Of a stretch of 64,000 bases of DNA, positions 40,450 through 63,921 are shown in pieces. Position 1 is the stretch's first letter. The number at the start of each line of letters is the position of its first letter. A program made the position numbers and the translations under genes. The notes beneath the pieces were generated by a model that did not search any database, was not told the DNA's origin, and saw only the letters and a program-made list of their open reading frames with translations. This stretch comes from Halicephalobus mephisto (lineage: Eukaryota > Nematoda > Chromadorea > Rhabditida > Panagrolaimidae), in assembly GCA_009193035.1 (NCBI GenBank), contig SWDT01000111.1, positions 62,001 to 126,000 on the forward strand, given 5' to 3'.

Positions 40450-40740
40450 ATGAAGCTGGTTATTATTGGACTGGTCTTGTTTGTGGCTGTGGCCTATGCT
40501 CAATTCGAGAATACTGAACTCCCACCACCTGATGGAACTCGTCCTCCACCACCCCCTGATGGAAGCCGTCCTCCACCTCCCGATGGAACTCGTCCTCCAC
40601 CTCCTGATGGAGGTCGTCCTCCATGTGACGATGGAGACCGTCCCCCACCACCACGTGATGGACAACGTCCTCCACCACGTGGTGGACAGCGCCCCTCACC
40701 ACCTCGTGGAGGAAGACGTCTTTCTCCACCACGCCATTAA
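40450..40740 (+). CDS. Secreted proline-rich repeat protein, paralogue B
   Basis: Single exon, 96 aa, the shortest of the three. The signal peptide (MKLVIIGLVLFVAVAYAQ) is followed by FENTELPPPDG, four PPP(P)DG repeats, the shared single cysteine (GGRPPCDDGD) and RGG-type repeats ending PPRH. Compared with A and C it lacks repeat units in both blocks, as expected from slippage or unequal exchange. ATG chosen as in paralogue A. AATAAA lies at 40805-40810. It points away from A, which is its closest match in the promoter; the two form an inverted pair 3.2 kb apart. Function unknown. Confidence 0.85.
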   Translation: MKLVIIGLVLFVAVAYAQFENTELPPPDGTRPPPPPDGSRPPPPDGTRPPPPDGGRPPCDDGDRPPPPRDGQRPPPRGGQRPSPPRGGRRLSPPRH

Positions 40741-41896
40741 ATTGGATCTTCTTGCCCAATGATCCCGAATTTTGTTTTATTTTATAACTGGTAATTGATT
40801 CTGGAATAAATTGGTGCTAAAAGTTATGTTTGATAACTTGTAAATTGAAAAATCAAAAAACTTCACTTTGTCTGAGAATTATGCTTTGTCATGGTTGAAT
40901 CACGGTGATTCATTTGTTCATAATTGAAATTTAACTTACTTCATTGATATTAAGATTACGCTGATTGTAATGAGCTTGTTATGTTAGTTTTTGTTCTTAT
41001 TTTTTCGTCACAAGATATAAAATAGAAGAAGTTTTACTCGGAGTAGTTTATCTGGATATATCACATATCACATCGAAACCGTTACAAGTGAATTCGGATT
41101 CGACCATCAAGTTTCATTAAATATCTTTTTGATACGAGGTAATTTGGAAGGTCCATGAATATAGATTTCTTTTTTATGTTTTTAATCATTATTTTCAAAA
41201 AAATAGAAATATGTAATCTATGTAGAAAATATATCTAATTATAAGAAATATTAAAGTCGATTAAAATACAATACGAACGTTACAAAAAGATCCTCGGAAG
41301 TTCGTTCCTAGATAAATAAACACATTTGTCTTTTTTCAGGATATGATTTGCACAACTTCACATGTTTATTTGATGTTCTCATTTCGGAAAGATCTCAAAG
41401 AAAACTCAATAATCGATTTTGAATATGTTGGGGACACATAGTCCCCATGACCAGAGATATTCAGAATACCGAAGTCTTAACAGTCCCTTCTCTTCAAGGA
41501 AAAGTATAAAAAAGAACACTTCGGTGTATCAGGAGTCCTCCCTGAGTGTAGCTCTGATGTTTAATAATATTGTTCCTATTCTTATATTTGTGTCTTATTG
41601 TTAAAGACGTAACAGAGTAAATATCCAATAAGCTAAAAAATTATATTATTCTAAAAGAATATTTTAAATAGAATAATTTTTTTGTCATTTTATAGTGGCG
41701 AAGAAAGTAAGAATGAAATTATGAAATTACTATGGCCAATTCAACGTTAATTTTGAACAAATCAAAAGATGGACGATCACAATTATAAATAAACGAGTTC
41801 ACTTGGTTCAATAGTGAAAAATTTTCATTCAAAGTGAATTTTTTCGTTCTTAGTTTTCTCAACTCGTATGTTATCAAACAAGTTTGCTAATTTTAC
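40741..41896. other. Spacer between paralogues B and C
   Basis: AT-rich unique sequence; a 61-codon open frame (41419-41604) has no support. AATAAA of paralogue C is on the minus strand at 41897-41902. Confidence 0.5.
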
Positions 41897-41959: not shown

Positions 41960-42313
41960 TTAACCGCGACGTGGTGGGGAGCGTCTTCCGCCAGAAGATG
42001 ATGAAGGTTGTCTTCCTCCAGAAGGTGGGGGAGGACGTTGTCCGTCACGTGGTGGTGGGGGGCGGTTTCCACCAGGGGGTGGTGGGGGACGATCTCCATC
42101 AGGAGGTGGTGGAGGGCGGTCTCCATTGTCACATGGAGGACGACCTCCATCAGGGGGTGGTGGGGGTTGAGTTCCATCGGGAGGTGGTGGAGGACGACTT
42201 CCATCAGGGGGTAGTGGAGGCTGGGTTCCATCAGGTGGTGGGAGTTCAGTATTCTCGAATTGAGCATAGGCCACAGCCACAAACAAGACCAGTCCAATAA
42301 TAATCAGCTTCAT
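41960..42313 (-). CDS. Secreted proline-rich repeat protein, paralogue C
   Basis: Single exon, 117 aa. The signal peptide (MKLIIIGLVLFVAVAYAQ) is closer to B than to A, but the 3' end and flank (CGCGGTTAAACTGGATCTTC region) match A. It is therefore a mosaic of the two, which suggests exchange between paralogues. Repeats are PPPPDG variants with Gln replacing Arg (DGTQPP), then GGRPPCDNGD, then PPPPPDGD and PPPPPGGN units and a Ser-rich SSSSGG stretch before the basic end. One cysteine is kept. TATA-like TATAAAAG lies about 55 bp upstream (plus strand 42362-42370). Function unknown. Confidence 0.85.
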   Translation of the reverse strand: MKLIIIGLVLFVAVAYAQFENTELPPPDGTQPPLPPDGSRPPPPPDGTQPPPPPDGGRPPCDNGDRPPPPPDGDRPPPPPGGNRPPPPRDGQRPPPPSGGRQPSSSSGGRRSPPRRG

Positions 42314-43078
42314 CCTTGAGAACAAGATTGTTCAAGTCATATCTTCCTCAATTTCAATTCCGCTTTTATAGTCCTCAGGTCAATTTCCACTCTATTGTCC
42401 AAATGAAAGGAAACCTTTGGACACGTAGCAAATTGCTTTCCATATTTGATCAGCTTGATGTCCGCTCTCGGAAATCAAATAATAATTTGTTTTATTTCAG
42501 AAAAAATTGCTTGTTTATTGGGGTTCAGTACGTCTTATGACCCTGAACAGTGATGTTTCAACTTTTTAAATTCTATTTCCTTTTCAAAATCTCGATGACA
42601 GAATTCACTATAAGTGCAGTTTTAAATTTGTTTAAAAAATAACCTTCATTTGTGAAGAAGAATCCGATTCGATTTCTGCCATCGTCCAGTTCCTTCTTCA
42701 GTGATTCTGAAGTTTTGAAATCTATCTAAACAGAATGTAGTTTCAAAACGCTGTTTACGAAATTTATGCAAAATCGAAATTTTCATATAAGTTACTGTAG
42801 TTTCTAAGAAATTCTAAAAATTCATATTGAAACATTTTCGTAAAATTTTATTTCGATTTTCATAATAGCGTGATTTCTATAAATTCCTATTAAGAGAGTT
42901 TTACAGTAATATTTCTGTTTATTTTTACAATAATAATTAAGGTGATTTTTAATCTATTAAAATAATGAGAATAATCTTAATTGATTTCGTTCAAAAAAAT
43001 GCTTTTATTTTCCTCATTATTGCTGATAAGGCGTTATAAAACTTGAACAAAATTAATTTTCATTGATTTTCTCAGAAA
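42314..43078. other. Intergenic region between paralogue C and the GH130 gene
   Basis: The first ~180 bp is the paralogue C promoter. The rest is AT-rich with no gene. TTTTCTCAG ends at 43075, three bases before the GH130 start codon. Confidence 0.5.
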
Positions 43079-44394
43079 ATGTTTCTAATTTGGTTGTTAT
43101 TTTTTGTATTTTTTCCACTTTTCTGTCAAGGAGTACCGCTTTACAAAGTAATCGCCCTGAGGCTGTCTAACGATACTGTAGTTTCGAAATTTCAAGGATC
43201 TGATTATGATTACAATTACAACGCTGCAATTTATCAAGAAAAAAACGGAAATTTCGGACTTTTAGTTCGATGTCAAAACCTCAAAAATGCAGGAATTCCT
43301 TTCGATGTCGGCCAATCTTACATAGTTTACTCAAATTTGATCATTAATCCCAATGGATCATCGATTTCAACTCCTCCAAAAATTTCCAAAGCTATTCCAA
43401 CAAAAAACGAAAATGGAGAATCATGCGGAACAGAAGATCCCCGGATATCCTTACTTGACGACACTTATTATCTTTTTTACACAGCTTACGACTGCAAACG
43501 GGCAATGTTGTCCGTCATGACCACCAAGACCCCCTCAGACCCTTCTAGTTGGACCAGAGGGGGTTTCGTACTCCCAGGAAGAAACTGGTCAAAATCAGGA
43601 GCTGTGCTATTCAAAACCAAAGATAACGGATTATCTCAGCATTATCTTTTTTGGGGAGATTCTTCTACTCCAAACGGAGGAATCGGAATCTGCGTTTCTT
43701 CCGATGGAAAAACCTGGAATGACACGGGAGAATATCTCTTAAAAATCAGAAATGGAACTAATCCATTTTTCGATTCTGATCTTGTGGAATCCGGTCCATC
43801 CCCGATCCAACTGAAAACAGGGGATTTTTTGTTCATCTACAACAGTGCCCAGAGGGGATTCCCAAGTGTCAAACCAAATTGGAATCTTCAGTACAATGTC
43901 GGCTATGCTATTTTAAACAAATCCGATCCCACTAATGTCATCCAAAGATCCAATAATCCGATACTAAGTCCAGCAACATCATGGGAAATCGGAAACGACA
44001 AAAGCACCAACTATTTGACTCCCAATGTTGTGTTTCTTGAAGGTAATTATCATTATCTTAATTTTTTTAGAATTAAATTTCAGGAATGATAAAAGATCCA
44101 AATGGATGTCCCAAAAACGTTGGAGATTTAATTGGATCTCAATTTGCAAACAATTCAGAATGTTTCATTGCGGTATACGGTGGATCCGATAGTGATCTTG
44201 GAGCAGTTAGAATCATCGCTAGCTATGTTGATCAACAAACCACAACTACAACTACAACTACGACTACAACAGCAGCCACAACTACGACTACAACAGCAGC
44301 CACAACCACAACTGCAACTGAGAACTTGCTACCTCGTGTGGTGATGATAATCAGTAGTTTTGTACTATTCACTGTCAATCGTTTTGGAATTTAA
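43079..44394 (+). CDS. GH130-like glycosidase/phosphorylase, cell-surface or secreted
   Basis: GH130 enzymes are five-bladed beta-propellers, mostly bacterial, that phosphorolyse or hydrolyse beta-mannosides. Exons 43079-44042 and 44084-44394, split by a 41-nt intron, join to 424 aa. Residues 1-19 are a signal peptide. Propeller blocks match the family: YNYNAAIYQEKNGNFGLLVR, GTEDPRISLLDDTYYLFYTA (EDPR at 119-122, the most diagnostic motif), KSGAVLF, ESGPSPI, GDFLFIYN, YNVGYAILNKSDPTNVIQRS with NNPILSP, and CFIAVYGGSDSDLGAVRIIA. A Thr-rich stalk follows, then a hydrophobic tail (MIISSFVLFTV), as in GPI-anchored or membrane-tethered proteins. The intron, acceptor before the ATG and AATAAA (44419-44424) show a host gene, not contamination. 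Whether it is active, and on what, is unknown. Transfer from microbes is inferred from family distribution. Confidence 0.8.
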
Positions 44395-47260: not shown

Positions 47261-49125
47261 TTAGACATCTATCTTCAATCTAGGATCATCTCTGCTGTGC
47301 CCATTAGATACTGGATTGTTCGACGTCATTGCCATTCTTTCACCAGAATAACAAGCTGTATAGCAATAAGGAGAGAAGCAGAATTCAAACCCAGTGCCAA
47401 GGCTTAAACAAAAACAACATACAGTAAGAAAATAAAAAACAAACCTTGATTCAACAGGTAACGGCCATTTCCATATGTCGTTTCCGAAAACTTGTTTGAA
47501 ATTCTTCTTAATCCCCAAATCATAAGCCTTCTTGAATGGACCACATTCCAATATCGGAGGTCTTGCGAATTCTAAAAATAATGATTTTTATAAAAAGCAA
47601 CTTTTTAAGTAAAAAATGACATTTTAAAAACAACTTTATATATAAAAACCAATTTCTATAAATAAAAACTAATAGCTTTTTTATATTAAAAACAAACTTT
47701 ATATAAGAAATAATTTTTATGTACAAAAAGTAGTAATTTTTCATGTTAAAAAATCCCAAAACTCACCAACGGTAGACTGATTAGTTCCTAGTAAATATAT
47801 ATGGAAGCCTAATAACGCCACTAGGGATATTCCAAACATTCCGGCAAAGAAGAAGATTATTATAATTTGGATTTCTCCTCTTCTGACATTCCGATGGTTA
47901 ATCAAGTCGATGAAATTCGGCAAAATTGTCAAGGATCCGTAGAGACATAGGAGGAACCCGTAAAGTAAAAACAAAACAAAAAACTTGTAATTACAATAAT
48001 TGACGCAATTGTTGACCCATATACAGTGATGGTCATATTTTCTGTAATTGAATAATATAAAACCATAAATACACAACATGGGCCAGAATTTCGAAACTAG
48101 TGATTGTAATTTGTTTCAGATGTGGTAATTTCCGAATTAGAAACTTTAGGGATATCAGCGATAGGTTAAATTACAGATGATATTACAAGGATTGCAGTAG
48201 TCTACAGTACTCGGCTATTACTGTGTAACAAAGCAAAGTAAATCAATAATTCGGAAATTACCAACTACTTCGTCGTTTGACAAAGTACTATCAAAGCAAA
48301 GTAATACCATATGTCCTAGTTAAATGGATCTTTAAGCTATGTTTCATATTGCTCATTTTTTAGGATTTCATATAATCCATAATTTTAGAATTATTGAATG
48401 CATTTCAGACGTCCCAACTTCAGAAGCAGAAATTTTACACATGTCACCAATAGATCAAGCCACAGAACTTATCCTAAAGATCTAAGGAGCACAAATTACT
48501 TCCCTATTACTATATAATAAGCCTAATTGCAATCAATAGTTCCAAAACTACGGACTACATTGTGCAAAATTTGACTTACAAGATACACTGATCGCAAACA
48601 GAACAATGAGAAGCTCGGTCTGGCTTCACAGATCCGCATTTCTGGCAGTATCGGACATCTGAAAAGACAATAATCAAGGTTTACAAGATAAAAATAAAAC
48701 CGACATCCAGTTCTGTAATCGCAGGTTTTGACTGGAAGACCGTTTTCATGAGCGAATTTCCGCAATTGATCAACCGCGAAAGGTCCATCTATTCCTTGGC
48801 TCTCGATGACGTTCCTCAACTCATTCGGCAACTTGAACTGGTCCGGAGGTCTTCTTCGGGGCGTGAAAACTGTCTTCAAATACGACCACAAAAACAATAT
48901 AAAAATCAAATTAAAGAAAACTCCAAAAATTATCCTCGTTGATAAGTCATCTTTGTAACCTAGAAAGCAAAATTCATATATGAAATTAGTATAAAATAAC
49001 CAAATACCTAGTAGGAAAATTACATTATAAGCATAAAAAGAAAAAACACTTATTGCCAAAACGAAGATTACTGGTATCCATTTCCCGACATTTGTCACAA
49101 CCCGCAGGAAAGCCCTACATGCCAT
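47261..49125 (-). CDS. DHHC palmitoyltransferase, ZDHHC2/15/20-like
   Basis: A multi-pass membrane enzyme that attaches palmitate to protein cysteines through an acyl-enzyme on the DHHC cysteine, usually at Golgi or plasma membrane. Exons 49008-49125, 48705-48959, 48580-48658, 47767-48041, 47445-47571 and 47261-47402 join to 331 aa, close to the human relatives. TM1 (about 16-38) and TM2 (about 55-75) precede the cysteine-rich domain: RYCQKCGSVKPDRASHCSVC, then DHHC at 154-157. TM3 and TM4 follow, then STVEFARPP (the TTxE position) and NFKQVFGNDIWKWPLP. The residue after DHHC is Ile where Pro is usual. The final intron (42 nt, AAG acceptor) is stop-free and keeps frame. TTTTCAG lies just before ACC-ATG. 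The class is secure; the exact orthologue is not. Confidence 0.92.
48123..48263. mobile_element. Inverted-repeat element in DHHC intron 3
   Basis: TGGTAATTTCCGAATTA (48123-48139) and its exact reverse complement (48247-48263) bound a 141-bp segment inside the 538-bp intron, the longest of this gene. It resembles a small MITE. No target duplication was clear. Confidence 0.6.
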
Positions 49126-49846
49126 GGTCTGAAAAAAACTAACTTAAAAGTGAAATAAAAAGTAAAAAATTTAGAAGCAAAACGAAGCTAAAAGTCGTTA
49201 AAGTCAATGACTCATCTTAAATTTTTTCTCGGAACGAAACGCCAAAAATTTTCCCTCAGAACAAAACGCCAAAAACATTTAATTTTCCAGTAATTAATTT
49301 CCTGTTTTAAGTATATTTTTTATTTAGTTGGAAATTAAAGGATTTATTTCTAAAGAATCCACTTCGAATTCACTTTTGAGAATTACTGGATTGCGACCGC
49401 TGTCTTGTCTGGCTGTCTGTTCTGTCTTTGCTTCTTCTCTCGTCGAATTGGGATAACTAACGCCTTGGATAACTCGTCACGATTGTCGCTAAGAAGCCCA
49501 TCAGGTGGGTTTAAGTCCAACTAAAGGAAATTTATAGAAACTAAAATTGTTAAAAAATCTAAAAACAGCGAAAAAATTTGATAAAATTCAAATTTAAAAA
49601 TTTTAGAAATACTTTTTATTAATAAAAAATATATACTTTTTAGAACTTTATTTAAATTAAATTTTGGATTTTTGTAATTAATTGAAAATTATATCTTATT
49701 GAAAAAAATGATAAAAAACAAAAAATCAAAAATCTGTTTCAGCATTCGATTTTTATACATTTTAATGGATATTTTATTTTTTGTACGATATTGTAGTAGA
49801 ATATGCCTGATAATTTTGTTTAATCACTCAAATTTAAAATATACTA
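49126..49846. other. Upstream region of the DHHC gene
   Basis: Holds a short duplicated CGGAACGAAACGCCAAAAAT / AGAACAAAACGCCAAAAACA word near 49230-49280 and mixed-composition sequence at 49370-49510. No gene was seen. Confidence 0.45.
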
Positions 49847-50022
49847 CAGTCGAACTTGGATATAAGATACCTTTTTGAGATCAATCAAAGTGTATGTTAT
49901 AAGAAAGGATATATCATAGCGGGATGAATTTGAAGGCAGATTAACCAAGTTCACTCACTCATACCGTATGCTATAATAAGAGATATTTTATAACGGGGGT
50001 ATCTTATATCCAAGTTCTACTG
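49847..50022. mobile_element. MITE family 2, copy 3
   Basis: Begins CAGTCGAACTTGGATATAAG and ends CTTATATCCAAGTTCTACTG, with TA on both sides (49845-49846, 50023-50024). The interior matches the pair in asm intron 5 (GTATGTTATAA, GGATATATCATAGC). Confidence 0.85.
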
Positions 50023-51791
50023 TATTTGTAAGAACTCGGCGAACCAGTGTGGTTGCGTGAGTGATGAAAAATAAGTTTTTTGTTTATCAAAACAATAATA
50101 GGATTCAACACAATCATCACATATATTACTTAACAAATCAGCACTCAGTCCATTACATAGACAGTATGCCTACTGTGTAGCACATAGGGTGTTTCTTTCT
50201 GAGATATGGCTTGCTTACTCTATGACCACTTGACGCACCGATATAACACTTTTTAATTACAATAAATAATTTCTTTAATATGTATGTTTATATCTTTCAT
50301 CTCTTTATTAAGATTTAAGGAAATCTTCGTGACAATTAACTAGATGAAGATGTTGAATACTTTATCGTCAAGCAAATTTATGAGAACGAAGATACTCAAC
50401 ATGATTTTACTGTTGAAAGGAATAAAAATCTTCTTGTTCTCTATTACCGTAACCATGACTCTCACAAAGTTATCTTTGTCTATCGACGGAATTCAAATTT
50501 CTGACTCACTATTGTAGATGAACTATTTAAAAATTCCAAAGCTTATTTGAAGACAATGTTTAAGAGTTTAGTTTCCATCGAAACTTTGTCTACTGTTCCA
50601 AACGAATTCTGAAAATGGAAAAAGAATTTCGAACAAATTTCCTCTATCCAAAAGTATAGGAAATCCCAATTGACGTTGAATAGATTTCCGTGAACTTAGT
50701 GAGATTGGTGTATTTAACTGGATAAGCCGGTGGTTTTTTATTTAGATAATCCATCATCAACAAGGTTTGACAGAGCTCAAATACCCAAATCCCTTGGGGA
50801 AGTCAATGGAAGTTAAAGACACAATCCGATGAAACCCTCAACTTACAAAATCAATGTTTGCTTTTGTTATTTTTGAAGTCGTAACTTCGATTATTTTAAT
50901 GATGAAATTGAAGTTATTCAATCCAAAAAATATAAAAATAAGTAAAGAATTCTACTGGAAGGATGTAAAATTTCATTTAAAAGATTTTTTATTAGTTTAG
51001 AGCATGTACACACAAAAAGGTACGTGACATACAATGTAGCGAATATTGAAACGGATCTGATGTATCGGAAGTGTTACATTTTATGCACTGGTACATTGAA
51101 ACAATGTACCTATATATTGTGCTCAGCTTATGTACCGATACATTGCAACCGTTTTTTGCATAGGTTTATTGACTTTATACTGTCATTTCTGTTGATTTTC
51201 CAAAGTTATATCTAGGCAAATTCAAAAAGGTCATATTTTCTTGAAGAACAAACATTCTATACCACTACAGTAAAACAGTATTTTCCTTGACAAAATATAT
51301 CTTTTCATCTATGTGGAAGTTGTATATCTGTACTGTATTAACTGTGTATAAAATTGCTTCTTTTTTGGTGGAAAGTTTTTCTACTAATTTAAAAACTACA
51401 GTTTCTTATTGCATTGTTAACTTCTGATTATTATTTATTTCTCCTTTACAGTAATTGACATAAAGAATCCTCTTTTTAAAATTCATATATTTGATTTTTC
51501 GAAATTCCAGTTGATTAAACAATGATTTACGTTTTTACACAAAACTATAATAGAAACATTTTCATCCTTGATCGAGGTTAACTTTCATTCATGTTAAAAT
51601 TGGAAAAGAACTGAAAGTAATTGATGATTGTTAATGTAATAATAACCTGCACAGTAATTAAGAAAAACATATGATAACTCTTTTTTAGAATTGATGGCAG
51701 AGGTTCTTAAGATCCTGTTGAATTACAAAACACCACAGCTGTTTATAAACTATAGGATATGTTAAACCCCACCATCAATGTGCACATCAGT
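50023..51791. other. 1.8-kb spacer between MITE and the Hsp70 cluster
   Basis: Unique AT-rich sequence. 50250-50700 has somewhat higher coding-like composition but is broken by stops in all frames; it could be a decayed gene or repeat. 51010-51160 repeats GTACATTG / ATGTACC words. No intact gene was recognised. Confidence 0.4.
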
Positions 51792-53485
51792 CTAATCTGT
51801 AGTACTACATTGGAAAATAGTAGCATGAGCTATTTTTACTTCAATAGCATTGTTCGTTCCTTGTATTGCTGCCTGAACTTCCAGAATACCGTTGATATCT
51901 AGCCCTAAGGTCACAGTAACAGAAACTTCTCCAGCTTTCTTCAGGGGGATTCCTTTTAATTCAATTTCCCCAATATATTTATCTTCTTCGATGTTCTCAG
52001 AAAGCCCCTCGTAGATCTAAAAACAATTACAGTATGATTATTTTAAACTGAAATTAATACCGGAATTATTGCTGCTGTTTGATAATCCCCAGATGTTTGG
52101 AATGTCATAGTATTATAACCAGGGATTTCAGAATTGTTCTTCAAAATTGCATTAAATTTGTTTCCTGCAATTTCAATTCCTATAGACAACGGAAGGGCAT
52201 CTTGAATCTTAAGATTTCTAATTGCATAGGAATCTGAGACTTCTAAAAGTCTGGCTGCGTACATGGTGGCTCCTTTTGCAATACCTTCATCTCCACTAAT
52301 TGTGTTTGAAAATGTTGTTTCATTAGAGAAGATGCTTCGTAAAATACTTTGGACCATGTTCATTCTGGAAGCTCCACCAACGAGGATCACATGGTTGATG
52401 TCTTTTGCCTCAATTTTGGAATCACGAAGCGTGTCTACGCAGCATTTTTTGATTTTCTCCTGAAGATCTCGAGCGTTGTTTTCAAATTCTTCTCTTGTTA
52501 TTTCTTCATTTACAGCTTCAGAATAAATATCATCTAAGTTTGCTACTTCTTTGTCAGTTTCACTGAATGATTCTTTAACATCACGAGCTACTTTAATTAA
52601 TCTGTAACGATATTTCGGTTGAGCCATTAACTTATCCATTTTGGCATCTCCGAATTGTCTTCGAAGGCGTTTTTCAATCAATTTGGCAACTACTTGATCA
52701 AAGTCCCTTCCTCCTAGATGAGTGTCACCTCCTAAAGCAATGACTTTGTAGATCCCCTTGTCTATTTTCATAATGGTGACGTCAAAGGTTCCTCCACCGA
52801 GATCGAAGATGAAAACTGAGTCCCCGTCTTTTAACATGTCATTTCTTTTCTCAGCTTCTATCTCTTGTTGATATGCTATGGCAGCCGCCACAGGTTCGGA
52901 TAGAATTTGTTTAACGGTGATCCCTGCTGCTGTGGCTGCTTGTAATGTCGCTCTCTTCTGATCCATATTGAAATAAGCGGGTACTGTAATTACCGCTTCC
53001 ATATCACCTTTCGTTACTTCCATCCGTCGACAAACATCATTCAATAAAAATTTTAGAATGTCAGTCGAGACTTTCTCAGGCGGGATCAGAGTTCTCTCTT
53101 CTCCATGAGCACTAACAAAGTGGACCTTACCTTCTTTCTGGTCTGGATGACCAATAATAGTAAAGGGCCAAGTATTTATAAATTCTTCAAGCTTTTCAGA
53201 ATTACTTGTCTCTGCTAAGAGCCGTTTAGCATCAAAGAGAACATTTTTGGGGTCTGCCCCAGATTTTGCAACTGCCATCCTTCCTACGAAAATTTCGTAG
53301 GGAGAATAGTAGATACAGGAAGGGGTAATGCGTTTACCTGTAATAAATATTGAGAAATGATATTTTATGTTTAATAATAACTTACCTTCATTATTTTCCA
53401 CTAACTCAACTTTCTCATTATGCCAAATTCCAACGGCAGAATTGGTCGTACCGAGGTCGATTCCAATAGCTAATTTCTGTTTCAT
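51792..53485 (-). CDS. Lidless Hsp70-type chaperone, copy 1
   Basis: Cytosolic Hsp70 relative; no organelle signal is visible. Exons 53386-53485, 52061-53337 and 51792-52016 join to 533 aa. The ATPase domain is near canonical: GIDLGTTNSAVGI (phosphate 1), catalytic Lys in FDAKRLL, VITVPAYFNMDQKRAT, SEPVAAAIAY, DLGGGTFDVTIM (phosphate 2), VILVGGASRM (adenosine). A recognisable linker (QDALPLSIGIE) leads to a complete substrate-binding beta-sandwich through GLDINGILEVQA. The protein ends about 20 residues later, so the helical lid and EEVD tail of ordinary ~640-aa Hsp70s are missing. Intron 1 (48 nt) is stop-free and divisible by three. A CTGATAAG GATA-type site lies about 60 bp upstream. It is most similar to copy 2. 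It may bind ADP/ATP and clients with fast exchange, by inference from missing lid. Confidence 0.92.
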
Positions 53486-54108
53486 TTGGAAATAAATTTT
53501 AAGCTGCCAAATAAGTTATACAAGGGAAAAGAGTGTTTTTCACTTATCAGAACAATTAACTCATCGATTTTTTTATTGATAATCATGTGCATAAACTGAG
53601 TGAATAAGGCGGGAAATTTTATTTCAGAATTTAGCATTGCAATTCAATTTCAGCTATAAAGATCACTTCTTAGATGAATTTGTTTGGAAATAAAAATGAT
53701 AGGAATTTGTAAATTCATTAATTAACATTAAGTGATTTGTCCTATCGTTCTGAACAAATTTGTTACCGAAATATTAATTTTCTATAGAAATTGCTTCCCA
53801 CATCCTATTAACATTAAATAATAAAGATACAAAAGTAAAATGATTTTGCTCAAGATTAGTTTGGTAGTAAAAAGATCCGTATTTTAACGGAAATGTTCTG
53901 TGTACTCGATTTAACACTGTAGTTTCCTTTTGTAATCGGATATTCGAAATGCTCTTTATTTCTCCATTATATTTATTAAAAACAAAAAATATGGCTATTC
54001 TTGAGATTCGTTGGTTGAATTTGTGAAACCATAATCAACTAACAAGTGATTCGGATTTTGTCTCAGTTGTTGATTGGATTCGGTTCTGTTCTCCATCTTA
54101 TATTGGTG
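53486..54108. other. Intergenic, Hsp70 copies 1 and 2
   Basis: Promoter of copy 1 with GATA-type site (plus strand CTTATCAG, 53543-53550), then AT-rich spacer. The poly(A) signal of copy 2 is on the minus strand at 54109-54114, 14 nt after its stop codon. No clear heat-shock element (nGAAnnTTCnnGAAn) was seen. Confidence 0.5.
53540..53551 (-). promoter_or_regulatory. GATA-type site upstream of Hsp70 copy 1
   Basis: CTGATAAGTG on the gene strand, 57-65 bp before the ATG. Copy 2 has TGATAAGAG at about the same distance (55850-55857), copy 3 has TGATAA at ~78 bp, and copy 4 at ~95 bp. In nematodes TGATAA sites bind ELT GATA factors, often intestinal. Six-base motifs are common in AT-rich DNA, so only the shared position gives weight. 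Confidence 0.4.
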
Positions 54109-54127
54109 TTTATTTTGCAACCCCAGA

Positions 54128-55799
54128 TCAAAAATCTAATTTATAAACAATTTTAGCTTTCACTGGAATGTCTGACCCAAAGATCTTTGCTGTTGTGATT
54201 TCTAGGATACCGTTTATATCCAGTTTTAAGGTCAAAATTACGATAAATTGATTGCCTATCTCTGGTGGAATTTCCCTTATCTCAATATCTCCAATACATC
54301 TGTCTTCTGTGCTTTCCAGAAGTCCTTCATATATCTGAAATACTTATATTATAATGAATATTGAATAAAAGTCGTACAGGGATTTTCAGAACATTTTCAC
54401 CGTCATTATATGCTAATATTGTTATGCCATGAGAGCTTGGAATAGTAGAATTCCGGTTAAACATAAGAAAATATTTGTTTTTTGCTATTTCGATCCCAAT
54501 AGACGACGAAAGAATACCTTGAGTCTTAAGATTCTTAATCACATTGGAATCTGAGACTTCCAAAAGTCTGGCTGCGTACATTGTGGCTCCTTTTGCAATA
54601 CCTTCATCTCCACTAATTGTGTTTGAAAATGTTGTTTCATTAGAGAAGATGCTTCGTAAAATACTGTGAACCATGGTCATTCTGGAAGCTCCACCAACGA
54701 GGATCACATGGTTGATGTCGTTAGCATTGATATTGGAATCACGAAGTGTATCCAAGCAGCACTTTTTGATTTTCTCCTGAAGATCTCGAGTGTTATTTTC
54801 AAATTCTTCTCTCGTTATTTCTTCATTTACAGCTTCAGCATAAATATCATCTAAGTTTGCTACTTCTGCTTCACTTTCACTGAATGATTCCTTAACTTCA
54901 CGAGCTGCTTTAATTAATCTGTAACGATATTTCGGTTGAGCCATTAACTTATCAATTTGGGGATCTCCGAATTGTTTTCGAAGGCGTTTTTCAATCAATT
55001 TGGCAACGACTTGATCAAAGTCCCTTCCTCCTAGATGAGTGTCACCTCCTAAAGCAATGACTTTGTAGATCCCATTGTCTATTTTCATAATGGTGACGTC
55101 AAAAGTTCCTCCACCGAGATCGAAGATGAAAACTGAGTCCCCTTCTCTTAGTTGGACTCCTTTCTGTTCAGCCTCTATCTCTTGTTGATAGGCTATGGCA
55201 GCCGCCACAGGCTCAGACAGAATTTGTTTAACGGTGATCCCTGCCGCCTTGGCTGCTTGCAATGTCGCTCTCTTCTGATCCATATTGAAGTAAGCGGGCA
55301 CCGTAATCACTGCTTCAATATTATCTTTTGTTACTTCCATCCGTCGACAAACATCATTCAGTAAAAATTTTAGAATGTCAGTCGAGACTTTCTCAGGCGG
55401 GATCAGAGTTCTCTCTTCTCCATGAACACTAACAAAGTGGACCTTACCTTCTTTCTGGTCTGGATGACCAATAATAGTAAAGGGCCAAGTATTTCTAAAT
55501 TCTTCAAGATTTTCAGAATTAATTGTCTCTGCTAAGAGCCGTTTAGCATCGAAGAGAACATTTTTGGGGTCTGTACCAGATTTTACAGTTGCCATCCTTC
55601 CTATGAAAATTTCAGTGGGGGAATAGTAGATACAGGAAGGGGTAATGCGTTTGCCTGTAATAAATATTGAGAAATGGTATTTTGTATCATTTAATGAGCA
55701 CTCACCTTCTTGATTTTCTGCGAATTCGACTTTTGGAGCAATTCCAACGGCAGAATTGGTCGTGCCGAGGTCGATTCCAATAGCTAATTTCTGTTTCAT
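54128..55799 (-). CDS. Lidless Hsp70-type chaperone, copy 2
   Basis: Exons 55706-55799, 54378-55654 and 54128-54334 join to 525 aa, with the same intron positions as copy 1. The ATPase domain keeps GIDLGTTNSAVGI, DLGGGTFDVTIM and ILVGGASRM and is almost identical to copy 1 over long stretches, at DNA level too. From the interdomain linker onward it departs sharply: QDALPLSIGIE of copy 1 becomes TQGILSSSIGIE, and the last exon (IYEGLLESTEDRCIG...VYKLDF) shares only about half its residues. The linker change would be expected to weaken coupling between ATPase and substrate domains. The lid is absent. Intron 1 (51 nt) is stop-free and in frame. The ATG at 55799 is used; the longer frame starts with a non-ATG codon. 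A TGATAAG site lies about 55 bp upstream. Confidence 0.92.
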
Positions 55800-57392
55800 T
55801 TGATGAGAGTTCAACAACGATTAAACACTTTGCACATTCGAACAATTTCTCTTATCAAAGTCCTTATTGATTTTTTGTAGATAATCATTGAGAATTTAAC
55901 TAGTGCAACAGAGCGTTGAATTCTGCTTAAGATGTTATCAGCACAATACAATTCAAGCAATAGAAATCACATTTTTGTAGAATTGATTTGGTTCTCTGAT
56001 TTTAAAATAAATAGAACTTTAAATATTCCAAACTCATGGAACTACATCCAATCATTGTTTCAACATAAATTTGTTGGAACGTTCATTTCCCGTAAAAACA
56101 TCTTAAATTGGCTCTCATCAAAAGTAAATAATAATTCAAAGTATCAACAGAAAAAGAAGCTTTAGGGTGAAGTATTTTCAGTACAAAATTGATAATAACA
56201 ACGATATGCAGTTACAGAGAGTAGTAATGACTCAAAATAACAAACAAACAATGACGAAAACTTCGTATTCCCGGTTTTGTAGTAATAATTTTAAAACTGT
56301 GTACATGCTCTCGTTTTTACTTTTGAGTTTTTTTATTTCCGATTACGGCAACAGCAACAACAAAAGTAAAATGGATTTGATCAATATTGAATTTGTAGTG
56401 AAACAGATAAGTGCTTCACATGTGTGAGGATGGCAGATTGCTACTATATGAGCAACATTTGATGTTTCAAGTACAATTAAAACAGAGGTCAACTATCCGA
56501 GACCTGTTCGTTACCAACTGAACGATATTGTGGTTTTTTGAGACCAGTAAAATGGCATTCAATATTTATTTCTGTCCTTACAAGGCTACAGATACCGCTG
56601 ATAGTTGTCAAATCGAGGCTCTCTATCACATAACAAAACGACACTATCGCATCGTAAGCTTTAAACCAAATTACTGTCCGGATCACGAATAGACATATCA
56701 GCATTTCTAACAAGTTCAACCAAGATAACTCCTAATTCGAGCACGGCTTGTTCCAAAAGCCGTAAGGTGTTTTCTAGTGCAATAAGTGATTTACTCCGAC
56801 TGCACAACCGTTCTCTTGCTTGCACGATATTTTTCCTCCAGGACAAGTCAATCTAGTCCAACACTTCCAAAGTAGTGCTGCAGAAATTCAATTTTATCCG
56901 TAATGTAGATTTTCCAATTGTGCTTTTTCATATGCCGACTTTATGAAAGTATACAATACTCAATAAAGAACAAATTGCACAACCACATTCTTGACTAACA
57001 TCAACAACAACCCAACAAACACTGTAACATCGTCGAAACCTTCATAGTTTACCTTCAACAAATCTAAATTGCTTTCGGCAGTAATAAACCTGAATTTTAT
57101 CAAGCATTAAGACATTAGTTTGTAATAATTATGGCTTTTAGAACGGCTGGTGGATCTGTGAGAGAATCCGAGTTAATTATGCTTCTACTTGTTTTGGACT
57201 TTGTTGCAATGTGTTGACAACTTGAGAATCTATTTTATAACAAAAGCATTTTCAAGAATATTTGATAATAAATAAAACTCATAAGAATTTACTAAACAAA
57301 CCAAATTCTAGATAAATTTTTGTTTGAATCGGGTTGGATTAAAGTTAAGTGAAAGCTATTTGTCCATGAAAGTTCTTTAAACACTCATTAAT
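55800..57392. other. 1.6-kb spacer between Hsp70 copies 2 and 3
   Basis: Starts with the copy 2 promoter (CTTATCAAAG at 55851). Plus-strand open frames at 55932-56165 and 56167-56427 and minus-strand frames at 56489-56846 have no recognisable domain or splice support. Could hold a decayed gene; nothing certain. Confidence 0.4.
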
Positions 57393-59141
57393 TCAATATT
57401 CCGTCACTTTTATGATCCCAAAGCTGTATTCTAGTTGAAAATCAATCTGCGTTATTACTTTATATGGAACCCCTTCGATTATGGCAAGTGTTTCAGATTG
57501 TAGAGCACAGTTATCATCAATCATCATTGTTATTTCCAAAGTGACTTCTCCAGCCTTCATAGGAGGAATTTCACTAATCTCGAGTGTTCCGATGAAGGTG
57601 TTTTCCTTCAAATTTTCTGAAAGGCCTTCGTAGATCTGAAAATACTTAATTATTACAGTATAATCATGTAATCACAACCGGAATTCGTGCTTCTGTCTGT
57701 CTATTCTCCGTTGTCTTTAATTCCTTCATCTTTTTACACGGAATAGGTGTGTTGTGTTCTAAAAGAACTTCAAATCTGTTCCCAGCAGCTTCTATCCCGA
57801 TGGATAATGGAAGAGCATCTTGGAAAGTCCTTTCACCAGATTCCAGAAGTTTGAAAGAAAGCAGCGCAGCACCTTTGGCAATGGCTTCGTCTGCACTCAG
57901 TGCCTTGGAGAGCTTTTTGTCTTTCCCGAATATTTCATTCATGAGTGTGGTTACTTTCCTCATCTTGGAAGAACCACCGACGAGAATAACGTGGTTAATT
58001 TGATCGGGCTTTAGCTTCGCATCTCTTACTGTGTCAACGCAACATTTGGATATTTTGTCCCACAAATCTTTCGAATTATTCTCGAAATCCTCTCGTAGCA
58101 TCTGTCCCGTGGTTGCTTCGGGAATGATGTCACTTAATATGACAGTTTCTTCATCGGCTTGACTGAGAGTTTCTTTCGTTCCTTGGGAGACTTCTGTCAG
58201 TCGGTGGCGATACTTTGCTTGTTGCATCTTTTTATCAACTACAGCTGGGTCAAGTTTTTGTTTCAGTAATTCCACAATCATTTTGGAAATTACGTTATCG
58301 AAATCTCTACCTCCCAAATGAGAATCCCCTCCAAGAGCAATTACATCGTATGAATTCTTCCCAACTTTCATGATTGTGACATCGAAGGTCCCTCCACCAA
58401 GATCAAAAACGAAAACAATATCTCCTTCTTTCAATTTGTCCTTTTCATTTTCACTTTGATTCTGATTAGTCTGATTTTCTTTGATTTGATTGTTCTCAGC
58501 CTCCATTTCATGCTGATAGGCTATGGCAGCAGCTACAGGCTCAGAAAGAAGCCGTTTAACCTGAATCCCGGCATTTCTTGCAGCTTCAATCGTCGCTCTT
58601 TTCTGGTTCATATTGAAGTAAGCAGGCACAGTGATCACGGCTTGTATCTTCTCACTTGGAATGCTGAACTTTCTACAGACATCCTCCAGCATAGATTTTA
58701 ATATATCACTGGAGACTTTTTCTGGAGGAATCAGATTGTATTCTTTACTGTCTGCTTTGTAAGTACGGTAGAACGCTTTTTCGATAAAGATATCACCTTC
58801 TTTCCCAGATACCTCAAATGGCCAAAATTGTCTAAACTCCTTAACTTTGTTTGAATTCATAGTTTCAGCAAGCAATCGCTTAGAATCGAAAAACACGTTT
58901 GCAGGATCAGTTCCTCCTTTTGCCCGTGCCATTCGCCCAATTAATTCAGCATTTTCATAGTAAGCATAACTCGGGTTGATTCGATGCCCTGAACTCAAAA
59001 AGTAGAAACTTTAGACTAAGCAATTTGCTTACCTTCTCTGTTTTCAGTCAATTCCAAAAATTTAGAAGTAGTTACTGCTATAACTGAATTAGTGGTACCT
59101 AAATCGATCCCCACGGATAATTGGTAAATAGCTTCTGACAT
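57393..59141 (-). CDS. Lidless Hsp70-type chaperone, copy 3, with Asn/Gln/Glu-rich insert
   Basis: Exons 59033-59141, 57679-58988 and 57393-57635 join to 553 aa, intron positions as in copies 1 and 2. Signature motifs are present: VGIDLGTTNSVIAV, DSKRLLAE (catalytic Lys), VITVPAYFNMNQKRAT, DLGGGTFDVTIM, VILVGGSSKM and the linker QDALPLSIGIEAAGNRF. An insert of about 20 residues rich in Asn, Gln and Glu (AENNQIKENQTNQNQSENEK) sits between the SEPVAAAIAYQHE segment and the phosphate-2 strand, where copies 1 and 2 have a short loop. The beta-sandwich is followed by about 35 extra residues but no helical lid or EEVD. It is clearly diverged from copies 1 and 2 throughout. The donor of intron 2 is GTTGTG, weak but required by frame. 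A TGATAA site lies about 80 bp upstream. Confidence 0.9.
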
Positions 59142-59527
59142 TGAGAATTAAAAATAACTATGAAATGCATGCACTGGCTTGCAGGGAACTGTTGTATATC
59201 AATTCAGGTGAGGCAGTGATAAAAGCTGTGTTATGAAAGTAGAAAATCAATCAGCAATTGGAATTAGACATGCATTTCTTAATGGAAAATTTGAAACGCT
59301 TCTCTCCAGTATTGGAATTCGTCGAAAACACTAAATCGTAATGGCGAAACTAATCATGACGAGCTAAATGCCGATGTTTTCCCCTATTTAGAATTGTAAG
59401 TCAACAAATGAGTTTAAACATTTCACTTATCAGTTCAATCGATATTTTATGGCTAATACACACTGGCAGCATTATCGAACACACCTATAATTCCTTGCTA
59501 TTGTTTCTCTTTGTATTTTCATTACCG
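59142..59527. other. Intergenic, Hsp70 copies 3 and 4
   Basis: 386 bp. Contains TGATAA at 59217-59222 and CTTATCAG near 59425. An overlapping plus-strand frame is not credible. No gene was seen. Confidence 0.5.
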
Positions 59528-61088
59528 CTAGTCAAACTGATATCTGTAATTGATTCGGCTTGTCAGTTCCTGTTTTTCTTCCATTTCTGCCTTGACGTGT
59601 AAGATCCCACTTTCATCCAGCGAAAAGTTAATTATAACGATCCCCATTTGTCCTTTTGGAATTTCTATCACAAGATCGGCGATAGGCGTATTGTCCGACA
59701 TTGCTGGTAATATGCCTTCATAGATCTAAAATGAATTGTAAGTAACTTCGTTTAAAACTAAAGTACCGGAATGACAAGGTGATCGTTGTCGATGACTTCA
59801 CATTCAACGGAAATTTTACTCGGCAATGGAAGATTTCTTCCAAAGATAACCTGAATCTCCTTATTGGGAAGCTCGATTCCAATAGAATAGTAAATTATGT
59901 TGTTTGTGTTGAATAAGGGGGAAAGCGCAGCTCCTCTTGCGAAATCTTGTCTCATGCTTGTTGATTTATGGATATCGATCTTAGTTCCAAGGATATCTTG
60001 TATCATATTCTTAACAAATGTCATGTTCGAAGCCATTCCAAACAAAACACCTTCATTGATTGTTATTTTAGCGTTATTAGCTTCGCTTACTGTAAGTTGG
60101 CAAATTTCTCGAATCCGTTGAACAAGATTTTCGCTCCTTTGATCGAATTCTAAGCTCGTAATTTCATCATCTTCAAAATTTTCATCAATGTCACTCAATG
60201 GAAGAGTCTCGGTTTCTGTTGTACTCAATGCTTCTTTGATTTCTGAAGCTACTTTGAGAATCTTGAATCGGACTTTTGACTTTTGCCTTATCTTTTGAAA
60301 ATCTTCAGAACCTAGTTGACTGATTAGTTTTTCCTGTATGATCTTGGCGATAACAAGATCAAAATCTCTCCCACCTAGCGTAGAATCTCCATTTGAAACC
60401 AAAACTTGATAAGTTTTTGAAGAATGAAAATATTTGATGACAGCGGTTTCTACAGCTCCTGCTCCAAAAATAAAAACAAACTTGGTTGTATCTTTGATGG
60501 GTTTCACAGCATCGTGATAGGACATCATCCCAGCAATTGCTCTTGGAACTAGTATTAGCTTATCAATTTTAATGCTTGCTTTTTCTACAGCTTTCATTAG
60601 AGCCAGCTTTTGGGTAAGAGTGAAATTCGAAGGATAGGCAATGGTAGTTGGATTTTCGGATTTGTCTTTGAGGGCTGGTTCCAACAAATCTCCAATAACT
60701 TTTATCGGACAGATCGGTTCTCCATCGCTGTTTCTGTAGTACACTTTTCTAAATTGATCATCAGGTTTGCAGTCAATGGAGAACGGCCAGTGATTCACAT
60801 AATCTTTAATTAATTGGGAATTTATATCTTGACCAATCATTCGCTTAGTGTCGAAGAAAAGATACTCGTAATTAGATGTAACATTATCTTTAGCTTTTTT
60901 ACCACATTTGTCAACAACTTGGCCTCGATAATGAGTATAAGCAGGGATAACGACTGGAAATTGGGTTTGGATTGTATAGGAAAAAAATGTAACTTACTTT
61001 CACTCTTGTTGTTTAAAATCCCAAAACCGAGTTGAACAATAACGAATTTCTCAGTTCCAATATGCATCCCGAACGAGTGCAGATCCAT
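59528..61088 (-). CDS. Degenerate Hsp70 relative, copy 4 (probable pseudo-ATPase)
   Basis: Exons 60998-61088, 59767-60953 and 59528-59725 join to 491 aa. Intron positions match the other three copies, so it belongs to the same family. The fold can be followed (FFDTKRMIGQDIN for FDAKRLLAE, NGDSTLGGRDFDLVIAKII, IYEGILPA at the last exon), yet the nucleotide loops are lost. Phosphate 1 is FGMHIGTEKFVIV instead of GIDLGTTNSAVGI. Phosphate 2 is IFGAGAVETAV instead of DLGGGTFDVTI. ITVPAYF is IAYPSNF, and the adenosine strand is LFGMASNM. The aspartates that coordinate Mg-ATP are gone, though the Lys in FDTKR remains. The reading frame is intact over 1,476 coding bases with good splice sites, so it is not an ordinary pseudogene. 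It also lacks a lid. TTTTAG precedes the ATG by 11 bases. Confidence 0.85.
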
Positions 61089-61759
61089 TTCAGATGACTA
61101 AAATGATCAAACATCAGTACTTTTGTAATTTTGTTTTTTATTTATTTACACTAAAATTAGCTATATATTTTTTAGATTTTTGAAATGATAATAACAATAG
61201 ATATTGTTACCACAAAGTAAGAGCTTAAGTATCAAAGATTAATAGGATGAAGGGAGAAATGAAACTTCTAAAATGTTATTAATCAAAGTTGTGGTTGAAG
61301 AATAAAGCATCATTGATGCCAGAACTACCACTTGGAACTTGTCTTTTTAAAAACTAATATTGAAAACAGCTGAATAAAACGATGTTAGGTTTACTATCAG
61401 AAATGCTTGATTCCTACTCAACCACAATCTTGGTTATTGGATTTTTAGCAATCTTCTATGAGATATTACATGAGTACTGATTTCTAGAAATAACTCAAAA
61501 TGGCAGTAATTAATTTTGTAAATTTGTAGTAAAGTAGATTCAGTGTGGAATAGTATTCCTTATTGGTACGAAGATTGTAGGTTCCTACTGTACTACCAAG
61601 TACTAACTAATCTTTATATCTTCTCTAACATAGTTAAGACAAAAAAGGGCTATTTATGAGTTGTTGGTTAAAATTCTTGAATTTTTTCTGACTAGGTAGT
61701 GTTTGGAGTGATGTGCAAACTGTCAGATGGGTTGATCTCCATCTTTTGTACTGGCAACG
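61089..61759. other. Spacer upstream of Hsp70 copy 4
   Basis: Promoter of copy 4 at the left end (TGATAA at 61183-61188), then AT-rich unique sequence with no gene. Confidence 0.45.
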
Positions 61760-62230
61760 AAATAAGTGGAGTATTGAGTTAGGAGAGAAAGAACTTGCCG
61801 TGGACTTGAAAGAGCGCTCGTCCGAGTCAGTCGCCATCAACAGTGGACGCAGAGATGGAATAATGAACACATAAGGCAGCTATCAGGAGTTACCGACGTC
61901 GCCGATTACATCTACCGAGGAAAGCACCGATGGGCTGGTCACGTCATGAGGAGAAAAGACGATCGTTGGACATGGAGAATAACAGAATGGACAGTGCGAG
62001 ACAAGACAAGACCACGCGGAAGACCACCCACTCGCTGGAGCGACTCTCTTCGCCCCCTATCCCTCCAGCCCATCACACTGCCCCGTACCGCCACCACTCG
62101 CCCGACAAGAACCCCATTCACCCACTGGTCGACGAGGACACAAAACCGAAGTGAATGGAAGCGAAGTGATCCACGCGGCAAACCCGCTTGAGGATGGATC
62201 TCCTATGTATCCTATGTATGAGTTAGGAGG
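61760..62230 (+). mobile_element. RTE-clade LINE remnant (3' end of reverse-transcriptase ORF)
   Basis: A frame from about 61850 reads WNNEHIRQLSGVTDVADYIY then RGKHRWAGHVMRRKDDRWTW, RITEWTVRDKTRPRGRPPTRW and SDSLR, the C-terminal tail of RTE-type non-LTR retrotransposon polyproteins. It continues to a stop codon at about 62189-62191. A short tandem CTATGTATC repeat follows at about 62205-62219, as at RTE 3' ends. The segment is much more GC-rich than its surroundings. It is strongly 5'-truncated, as usual for LINE insertions. The reverse transcriptase core is absent. Confidence 0.85.
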
Positions 62231-63921
62231 CTCACAATTGTTAGTTTTTGTTCTATATTTTACTATCTCGAATTTTAAAATATCACAAAGATTATAAAAG
62301 ATTAAAAATATCAAATCAAATGATCTTTTAATTTTTAATAATTGATAATGATCAAAATTCATTAAAAATTAAACATACTTTTGTTAGTTGTTCGCATCTA
62401 TATCCTTGGGTCCACGGTAATTTAACAGAAACTAATGAAACATTAGATAATTTTTAGTATCAGACGGTATTTCTTAATAATAATTCCGGCTCAAGACAAA
62501 TTAAACTTTTTTATAAAAAATATTCACCAGAAATTTTCTCTACAGTTTCACTTTTCGTCAGCAAACACCGAATTAGTCATACAAAATTACTTGCGGTTTC
62601 TATGTATGAAAAATTTGCGTTATCAATGAATCATTGTGTGACGAAAGATCGAAAAAAATTATCTGTTCAAAAAGCATATAGATGTCATTGTTCGCTTCTC
62701 GTGAGAAATTTTGACTAAATGACTTCAAATAACTGATAAAGAATACGTTTGGTCTTTGATGACGTAAATATTTATTTATAAAAATTCTTTGCAACAAAAT
62801 TGAGTATCCGAAAAGACCAAGATATCCTCTTCCGACGTTGGCAATAATTTTTAATTCAAAATTAGAACTATAATCCTGATGTAAAAATTACTGTATCTGC
62901 AAGTTGATTCTGTTGTTGACACATTTGATTGAGATTTGTAGAAAATTACTTTTGTATAACCTATCGTTACTTTTGGCGCAATTACTTTTTAAATAGATTA
63001 TTTATAATTTCGAAGCTCATTGGATATTTATTCAACGTTCATTATACATTTTTATTGAAAAGTTTTCCGAAGCGATAAGATTACAAAAAGAAAATTGATG
63101 ATAAATTACGAAAACTTAAAAACGATGTAAAAAAGACAAAGATCAAAACAACACCAAAAATTTGAAAAAAGTCTTTAAAATTCAAAAATGATTACGAAAG
63201 ATTGATATATATACTTTATGTCGATAATCAAATATCCTAAATAACTTCAAGATTTTAAATCTGTCAATGTCAACTACTATATTTTAGAAAACAAAAAAGT
63301 GAAATAAAATAATTAACTGAAGTCAGTAGGAAGAACGAAATAGAAGAAAATCAATCTGAAAACAACAATATTCATTAAAGTTTGAAAAAAGTTTATTAAT
63401 TAATAATTATCAAATCTCTATTCTTTACTTTTATTAAAATTCAAAGATTTCGAGATATCAGATTTCCTCACCATCTTCCCATAGAAAAGCAAAAAAATAT
63501 ATTCCGGCAAAGGTGAAATTGAATCATCCGGTTTTACTTAAAAACAGTATTAATTGACAAAAAGAAAAATAGTTAGGAATTTAGCAATTTTAAAGAAGTA
63601 CAAAGTTTGTGATTCAAAAAAGAATCAATCACCATTTGTGTCAAAACCATCACTCAAGATTTATTTTTAGAAAACAAAAAAATCATTAAAAATTGGTTTT
63701 TTCGCAGTCAACGCTTATAGGATCACCATTCAAGCTAACAGAAAAAAATTTTTAAAAATATTATTTGCAACAATATTATTGTTTAAAATATATTTTTATA
63801 AAACAAAAACAAAGAAATTAATGAATAAAATTCCACTAGTTCTATCACAAATAATGCTTAATTTTATCTTTAACAACAAAGTTGTCTGGTATATTTTTAG
63901 CTTTTTTCTAGTTGAATCTAA
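62231..63921. other. AT-rich intergenic region
   Basis: No gene, RNA or clear repeat was recognised in these 1.7 kb. Composition is uniformly AT-rich and short open frames lack support. Confidence 0.5.

What the first reader, a model, noticed from the sequence alone, without database searches (positions are those of the whole stretch)
51792..61088. Tandem cluster of four lidless Hsp70 genes
Seen: four minus-strand Hsp70 relatives with the same two intron positions (phase 1 after the ENxEG/KR region, phase 0 before IYEG), and each ends right after the substrate-binding beta-sandwich at 491-553 aa. Known: the C-terminal helical lid and EEVD tail of cytosolic Hsp70s control client retention and co-chaperone docking. 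Inference: loss of the lid preceded the duplications, so this is a distinct lineage-specific Hsp70 subfamily that may act as a fast-exchange chaperone, a regulator of ordinary Hsp70, or in stress or immunity.
Basis: partly seen in the sequence, partly recalled or inferred. Interest (0 to 1): 0.75.

Follow-up and report, generated by a model that had tools for sequence, protein, structure and literature searches.

The report
Cluster of naturally lidless Hsp70 genes
A nematode carries a tandem set of Hsp70-like chaperone genes that lost the flap which normally traps client proteins; the loss is old and shared with related worms, and two neighbouring copies have nearly the same motor but very different client-binding halves.

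Summary
In detail: four minus-strand genes (491, 553, 525, 533 aa) share two introns, end right after the Hsp70 beta-sandwich, and no lid sequence was found in or beside them. They belong to a family of at least ten copies in this genome. Relatives from Panagrolaimus and metagenomes are lidless too; with them the copies form one clade against all lid-bearing Hsp70s in the tree (100/100). So one old lid loss preceded the duplications, but it is not confined to this lineage, and the introns also occur in lid-bearing paralogues.

New here: (i) B, C and D keep the ATPase residues, A has lost them; (ii) C and D have similar ATPase domains but strongly diverged client-binding domains, with the switch at the interdomain linker (synonymous difference 0.17 versus 0.69); (iii) the sandwich ends in a signature I-x-[YFH]-x-x-x-[FY] in 15 of 15 rows listed; (iv) unlike three canonical Hsp70 genes of this genome, they lack heat-shock elements.

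Most likely role: ATP-switched, fast-exchanging client binders without refolding power, assisting full-length Hsp70 (inference). Lidless Hsp70s are known (Ssz1, some plant Hsp70s), so this is a new variant of a known kind.

The parts
59528..61088 (-). Gene A: 491-aa lidless Hsp70 relative; exons 61088-60998, 60953-59767, 59725-59528. Nucleotide-binding residues lost (pseudo-ATPase by sequence).
   Evidence: model; Pfam HSP70 4e-35; D10>H, T14>E, E175>V, phosphate-2 loop DLGGGT replaced, GG>GM; exon 2 model, pLDDT 86.3
57393..59141 (-). Gene B: 553-aa lidless Hsp70, catalytic residues kept, DnaK R167 equivalent kept; exons 59141-59033, 58988-57679, 57635-57393
54128..55799 (-). Gene C: 525-aa lidless Hsp70, catalytic residues kept; ATPase domain similar to D, client-binding domain highly diverged, linker Asp lost; exons 55799-55706, 55654-54378, 54334-54128
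51792..53485 (-). Gene D: 533-aa lidless Hsp70, catalytic residues and linker Asp kept; exons 53485-53386, 53337-52061, 52016-51792
59726..59766 (-). Phase-0 intron 2 of gene A before IYEG (41 nt; counterparts in B 57636-57678, C 54335-54377, D 52017-52060)
   Evidence: same position in lid-bearing L019 and L021
60954..60997 (-). Phase-1 intron 1 of gene A (counterparts in B 58989-59032, C 55655-55705, D 53338-53385)
   Evidence: same position in L018, L019, L021

Best explanation
The locus is a tandem array from an old clade of Hsp70s, present in Halicephalobus-like and Panagrolaimus nematodes, that lost the helical lid and EEVD tail once, before the copies multiplied. Shown by sequence: B, C and D have intact ATPase residues, a complete substrate-binding beta-sandwich, and a conserved short end (I-x-[YFH]-x-x-x-[FY]) where the lid would begin. 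A has lost the nucleotide site but its second exon is still predicted to fold as an Hsp70 ATPase domain. Between C and D the ATPase half is alike and the client-binding half diverged, with the switch at the linker; gene conversion between copies is the likely cause. Inferred mechanism: ATP opens and closes the sandwich as in other Hsp70s, but with no lid to trap the client, binding is weak and fast. The proteins therefore act as holdases or client scouts that pass clients to full-length Hsp70, rather than refolding them. They probably use altered J-protein contacts (DnaK R167 equivalent is Gln in C and D) and are not driven by the heat-shock factor. A is a non-hydrolysing member, possibly a regulatory partner.
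For: Gene models and lid absence. Monophyly. Lidless relatives in Panagrolaimus and metagenomes. Residues. Purifying selection: pairwise dN/dS 0.22-0.41 among C, D, E, F and 0.30 for B-H. Domain-wise synonymous divergence and runs of identity. Fold of the relative P0003: complete beta-sandwich, no lid, pLDDT 89.7, TM 0.88 to AMPylated BiP. Published lid deletions: C. elegans Hsc70 cut at 512 keeps ATPase, binds DNJ-13 more strongly and loses all refolding (PMC3315512, abstract and passages); lidless DnaK has 10-100 times faster on and off rates (stated in PMC7083937, passages). No heat-shock elements.
Against: No transcript or protein data were available. The client-scout role is not shown. 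The groove-contact residues are not more variable than the rest of the domain (0.506 versus 0.462, p = 0.34), so selection for new client specificity is not demonstrated. Change of the R167 equivalent argues against a simple J-protein-driven cycle in C and D. C has lost the linker Asp and A the whole linker motif, so their two halves may be uncoupled. The domain-wise divergence is not seen in all pairs (D-E p = 0.16, B-H p = 0.16). The run test shuffles columns and ignores rate differences between domains, so its p values are rough.
Confidence: 0.6

Rival explanations
1. Ssz1/HSPA14-like regulators: the lidless proteins act mainly as non-folding partners of particular J-proteins, for example at the ribosome, and not as client binders.
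For: Same domain layout as Ssz1, which lacks the lid and has a complete beta-sandwich (PMC7083937, passages). Gene A has lost ATPase residues. The R167 equivalent is changed in A, C and D.
Against: B, C and D keep the catalytic residues, whereas Ssz1 binds but does not hydrolyse ATP. The best solved-structure match of D is HSPA1A. Ten copies, mostly in small arrays, do not look like a single ribosome factor. No HSPA14 or Ssz1 sequence was in hand for the tree.
Confidence: 0.15
2. Decaying family: the lid was lost by accident and the copies are on their way to pseudogenes, kept open only by recent duplication and gene conversion.
For: Two of ten copies (C239, C90) have broken frames in this assembly. 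Gene A is very divergent (branch 2.65). Exchange between copies is likely.
Against: Seven of ten copies are open to a stop, and H is open up to the contig end. dN/dS is 0.22-0.41. The end signature is conserved in 15 of 15 rows, several from other species. Gene A is open over 491 codons despite extreme divergence.
Confidence: 0.15
3. Ordinary heat-adaptive Hsp70 dosage: these are simply part of the published Halicephalobus Hsp70 expansion and add refolding capacity under heat.
For: The genome shows both expansions reported for H. mephisto, Hsp70 and AIG1; the paper reports heat induction of the expanded Hsp70s (PMC6872716, abstract).
Against: Without a lid refolding is lost in C. elegans Hsc70. 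Eight lidless upstream regions have 1 near-match to a heat-shock element in total against about 1.3 expected, while three canonical Hsp70 genes have 5, 2 and 14.
Confidence: 0.1

Closest known systems
Canonical cytosolic Hsp70 (human HSPA1A; here L001, L002, L006)
   Same: ATPase motifs, linker region and beta-sandwich; D aligns to human HSPA1A over 3-522
   Different: No helical lid, no Gly-rich tail, no EEVD; linker LLL is KIQ in D; DnaK V436 equivalent is Ala in B, D, E, F, G and Leu in A and C; no heat-shock elements upstream
Ssz1 / HSPA14 (Hsp70L1)
   Same: ATPase domain plus beta-sandwich without the lid (Ssz1: passages)
   Different: B, C, D keep ATPase residues; multicopy family; orthology not tested
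HSPA13/STCH
   Same: C-terminally shortened Hsp70
Plant truncated cytosolic Hsp70 T1, type III (lidless)
   Same: Lidless, proposed holdase (PMC10687569, passages)
   Different: Plant lineage; independent origin presumed, not tested
Paralogues of this genome on C202 and C244 (L018, L019, L021)
   Same: Share the intron-1 position (all three) and the intron-2 position (L019, L021)
   Different: L019 and L021 keep a lid in the last exon and have one more intron; in L018 the last exon was not found

Membership tests
Hsp70 superfamily (Pfam PF00012) | Match to the HSP70 profile over ATPase domain and SBD-beta | tested here: met
   4 of 4 genes above cut-off, to profile position 479-499 of 599
Canonical cytosolic Hsp70 | Helical lid after the beta-sandwich | tested here: not met
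   tblastn with five lids: none in window 49000-62000 or in the six loci of the other members; controls found
Canonical cytosolic Hsp70 | C-terminal EEVD | tested here: not met
   The four proteins end QFD, TEY, LDF, TTD; L001 and L006 end EEVD
Canonical cytosolic Hsp70 | Catalytic residues D10, K71, E175, D199, T204 (positions recalled) | tested here: met
   Met for B, C, D and for E-H; not met for A, which keeps only Lys71 (alignment blocks)
Ssz1/HSPA14 | ATPase domain plus SBD-beta, no lid | tested here: met
Ssz1/HSPA14 | ATPase domain that does not hydrolyse ATP | tested here: inconclusive
   Residues intact in B-D, lost in A; no activity measured
Ssz1/HSPA14 | Grouping with HSPA14/Ssz1 in a tree | not tested
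   No row named HSPA14 or Ssz1 was shown or 67 (capped lists), so none was in the tree
Ssz1/HSPA14 | Stable complex with Zuo1/MPP11 | not testable with these tools
   needs biochemistry
HSPA13/STCH | No substrate-binding domain | tested here: not met
   Complete beta-sandwich in the model of P0003 and in the alignment
Plant Hsp70T1 type III | Grouping with plant truncated Hsp70s | not tested
   Only one plant row, lettuce P0092 (610 aa), was in the trees; it falls outside the lidless clade. No type III sequence was included.

The most novel reading that the evidence does not exclude
Panagrolaimid nematodes run a chaperone repertoire built from one conserved ATP motor and many divergent, lidless client-binding halves. 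Gene conversion keeps the motor uniform up to the linker while the binding halves drift or are selected apart, and in some relatives units are fused head to tail in one protein or joined to other domains.
Probability: 0.2. Interest if true: 0.7.

Novelty: new variant of a known kind. Interest (0 to 1): 0.5.

Why it matters
Lidless Hsp70 has often been studied as an engineered mutant. Here evolution has kept such proteins, with intact ATPase sites, across related nematodes. They offer natural material for asking what an Hsp70 can do without trapping its client. They also warn that counts of Hsp70 genes in stress-tolerant nematodes cannot be read as refolding capacity, since a whole sub-family lacks the lid and at least one other gene looked at here (L023) lacks the entire substrate-binding domain.

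Tried and rejected
Heat-shock control: scanned 500 bp (386 bp for B) upstream of 8 lidless genes (A-H) for three-unit heat-shock elements with at most 1 mismatch; 1 hit (A, 1 mismatch) against a summed expectation of about 1.3 from single-base shuffles; the controls L001, L002 and L006 had 5, 2 and 14 hits, and L003, L009, L021 and L019 had 1, 1, 0 and 0. So ordinary heat-factor control was rejected for this cluster.

Selection on the client groove: 12 contact positions (numbering recalled) vary 0.506 against 0.462 elsewhere in the domain, p = 0.34; loops 0.533, p = 0.24 (six paralogues). Not supported.

Client-binding domain alone as a tree (22 rows): poorly resolved inside the lidless group; C stands alone on a branch of 1.38, not beside D; the split of the four lid-bearing rows from the 18 others has 98/94. 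A tree of the ATPase domain alone was not built.

Allelic or misassembled copies: B and H differ at 11% of synonymous sites, too much for the 1.15% heterozygosity published for H. mephisto (passages), so taken as paralogues; the short contigs C306 and C239 remain a caution, and H runs off its contig, so its end is not seen.

Gene A elsewhere: 72 weak matches among 5681 candidates, all at 28% identity or less; their sequences were not read; no likely orthologue.

Solved structures: Ssz1 was not among the rows shown; this excludes nothing. The model of gene A was not searched against structures.

Fusion of a long N-terminal part to lidless Hsp70 (P0121): I wanted to look for that part in this genome; the genome server did not answer.

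Literature: the listings (titles and abstract starts) showed no paper on naturally lidless Hsp70 in nematodes; most subscription journals are not held. In PMC6872716 the words truncat, lid and substrate-binding do not occur in the main text, and its Hsp70 section (read) does not describe domain loss; its supplements were not read.
Full report
WHERE IT IS. The window is contig C45:62001-126000 of a 59.9 Mb, 331-contig genome with 31% G+C in the window. Hsp70 (74 profile matches, counted exon by exon) and AIG1 (59 matches) are both expanded. That pair of expansions, the size and the G+C match Halicephalobus mephisto (61.4 Mb, 32.1% G+C, 112 Hsp70 and 63 AIG1 loci; PMC6872716, passages) or a close relative. 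The species is my inference; no call names it.

THE OBSERVATION. Four genes lie head to tail on the minus strand: A (491 aa), B (553), C (525) and D (533), each with three exons and GT-AG introns of 41-51 nt, phase 1 then phase 0. Pfam HSP70 covers the proteins up to profile position 479-499 of 599. Five lid regions from this genome's own lid-bearing Hsp70s find no lid in window 49000-62000 or in the six loci of the other family members, although each finds its own gene.

THE FAMILY. Searching the genome with D and with its last exon and reading the loci gives ten lidless copies: A-D on C45, E and G on C311, F and H on C306 (H is cut by the contig end in its last exon), and two with broken frames, I on C239 and J on C90. 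The count is a lower bound by the tool's own statement. In the protein collection, relatives include P0003 (full length) and P0004 (N-terminus missing) from metagenomes, proteins from Panagrolaimus sp. JU765 (529 aa, 46% identity over 99% of D) and PS1159 (515 aa, 40%), and one from sp. ES5 that lacks its N-terminus (436 aa, P0023); all five end after the sandwich. The metagenomic frames P0006, P0007, P0008 and P0010 all stop shortly after the second intron position, and P0007 and P0010 start just before the end of the first, as unspliced genomic frames would.

ORIGIN. In a 38-row tree the 21 rows of the lidless group are split from 17 others with 100/100 support. Of those 21 rows, 12 show the protein ending after the sandwich, 2 (P0001 unit 1, P0002) run on into a second Hsp70 unit and not into a lid, H is cut by its contig, and 6 are fragments. 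In a 28-row tree without gene A, the fragments and two distant rows (10 rows dropped), the 13 rows of the group form a clade at 100/100. The client-binding domain alone separates the same two groups with 98/94 but is otherwise poorly resolved (22 rows). Lid loss is therefore best read as a single old event that precedes the duplications seen here. The paralogues L018, L019 and L021 have the first intron in the same place and phase, and L019 and L021 the second; the last exons of L019 and L021 run on into a lid. So the introns mark a wider group, and the lid probably disappeared by an early stop within the last exon.

DOMAIN-WISE DIVERGENCE. C and D differ at 16.8% of synonymous sites in the ATPase domain but 68.6% in the client-binding domain (Fisher p = 1.5e-17); D-F, C-F, C-E and E-F show the same direction (p = 9e-06, 1.1e-06, 5.5e-05, 0.026), D-E and B-H do not differ significantly (both 0.16; B-H leans the other way). 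The C-D switch lies at the interdomain linker. Runs of shared polymorphic sites are longer than in 5000 column shuffles in all six pairs among C, D, E and F (p 0.0002 to 0.001), with a 90-site run in D and E from the end of exon 2 through most of the last exon. Synonymous sites are hardly held alike by protein selection, so this points to gene conversion between copies. The client-contact positions are not more variable than the rest of the domain (p = 0.34), so diversifying selection is not shown.

REGULATION. Eight lidless upstream regions hold 1 near-match to a heat-shock element where about 1.3 are expected; three canonical Hsp70 genes hold 5, 2 and 14, of which 2, 2 and 8 are exact. The cluster is unlikely to be under ordinary heat-shock-factor control. 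The published heat induction (PMC6872716, abstract) was for the expanded family; I could not tell which of its genes these are.

HOW IT MAY WORK. Published truncations give the best guide. C. elegans Hsc70 cut at residue 512 still hydrolyses ATP, binds DNJ-13 more strongly and has no refolding activity (PMC3315512, abstract and passages). Lidless DnaK exchanges substrate 10-100 times faster (PMC7083937, passages). Ssz1 is a natural lidless Hsp70 (same passages), and lidless plant Hsp70s are proposed holdases (PMC10687569, passages). From these I infer ATP-switched, weak and fast client binding without refolding, in support of full-length Hsp70, with altered J-protein contacts in C and D. This step is inference.

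NOVELTY. Lidless Hsp70s are known, so the kind is known. A multicopy clade shared by related nematodes, with intact ATPase sites, a conserved new end and an ATPase half kept alike up to the linker, was not described in the listings and passages seen. PMC6889759 reports Hsp70 domains among those enriched in cryptobiotic Panagrolaimus (passages), but the paper uses JU765 as an outgroup to the cryptobionts, so lidlessness is not tied to cryptobiosis.

Noticed in passing
L023 (C217:59578-63432), 703-2710 +: A two-exon gene with about 265 aa of unknown N-terminal sequence (start codon not settled) and an Hsp70 ATPase domain that stops right after it: no substrate-binding domain at all. 34 further matches (24, 10 more) share the pattern of a 546-585 aa open frame matched only over the first part of the ATPase domain; none was checked one by one, as the genome server was busy.
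   Followed up: partly
P0001 (780 aa) and P0002 (576 aa), metagenome proteins: Each continues in frame from the end of one lidless Hsp70 unit, through a linker of about 15 residues, into the start of a second unit: possible head-to-tail poly-Hsp70. The contigs could not be read.
   Followed up: partly
P0121 (1111 aa), metagenome protein: About 560 aa of N-terminal sequence, by eye with three repeats and a charged stretch, without Pfam match, in front of a lidless Hsp70.
   Followed up: partly
window 43067-44089 +: Single open frame with a hydrophobic start and a GH130-type glycoside phosphorylase match (E 7.9e-20); a candidate for horizontal transfer, origin not tested.
   Followed up: no
window 36866-37288 - and 41960-42331 -: Related short secreted-looking proteins made of PPPPDG repeats; a third similar stretch near 40463-40816.
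   Followed up: no
window 61692-62297 +: Overlapping frames resembling a retroelement fragment beside gene A; one frame was tested and has no Pfam match. The resemblance is recalled.
   Followed up: partly
C306 (18.6 kb) and C239 (21 kb) contigs, loci L013, L016, L027: Short contigs carrying further lidless copies; H is 96% identical to B in its second exon at protein level, so recent exchange or duplication between contigs is likely.
   Followed up: partly
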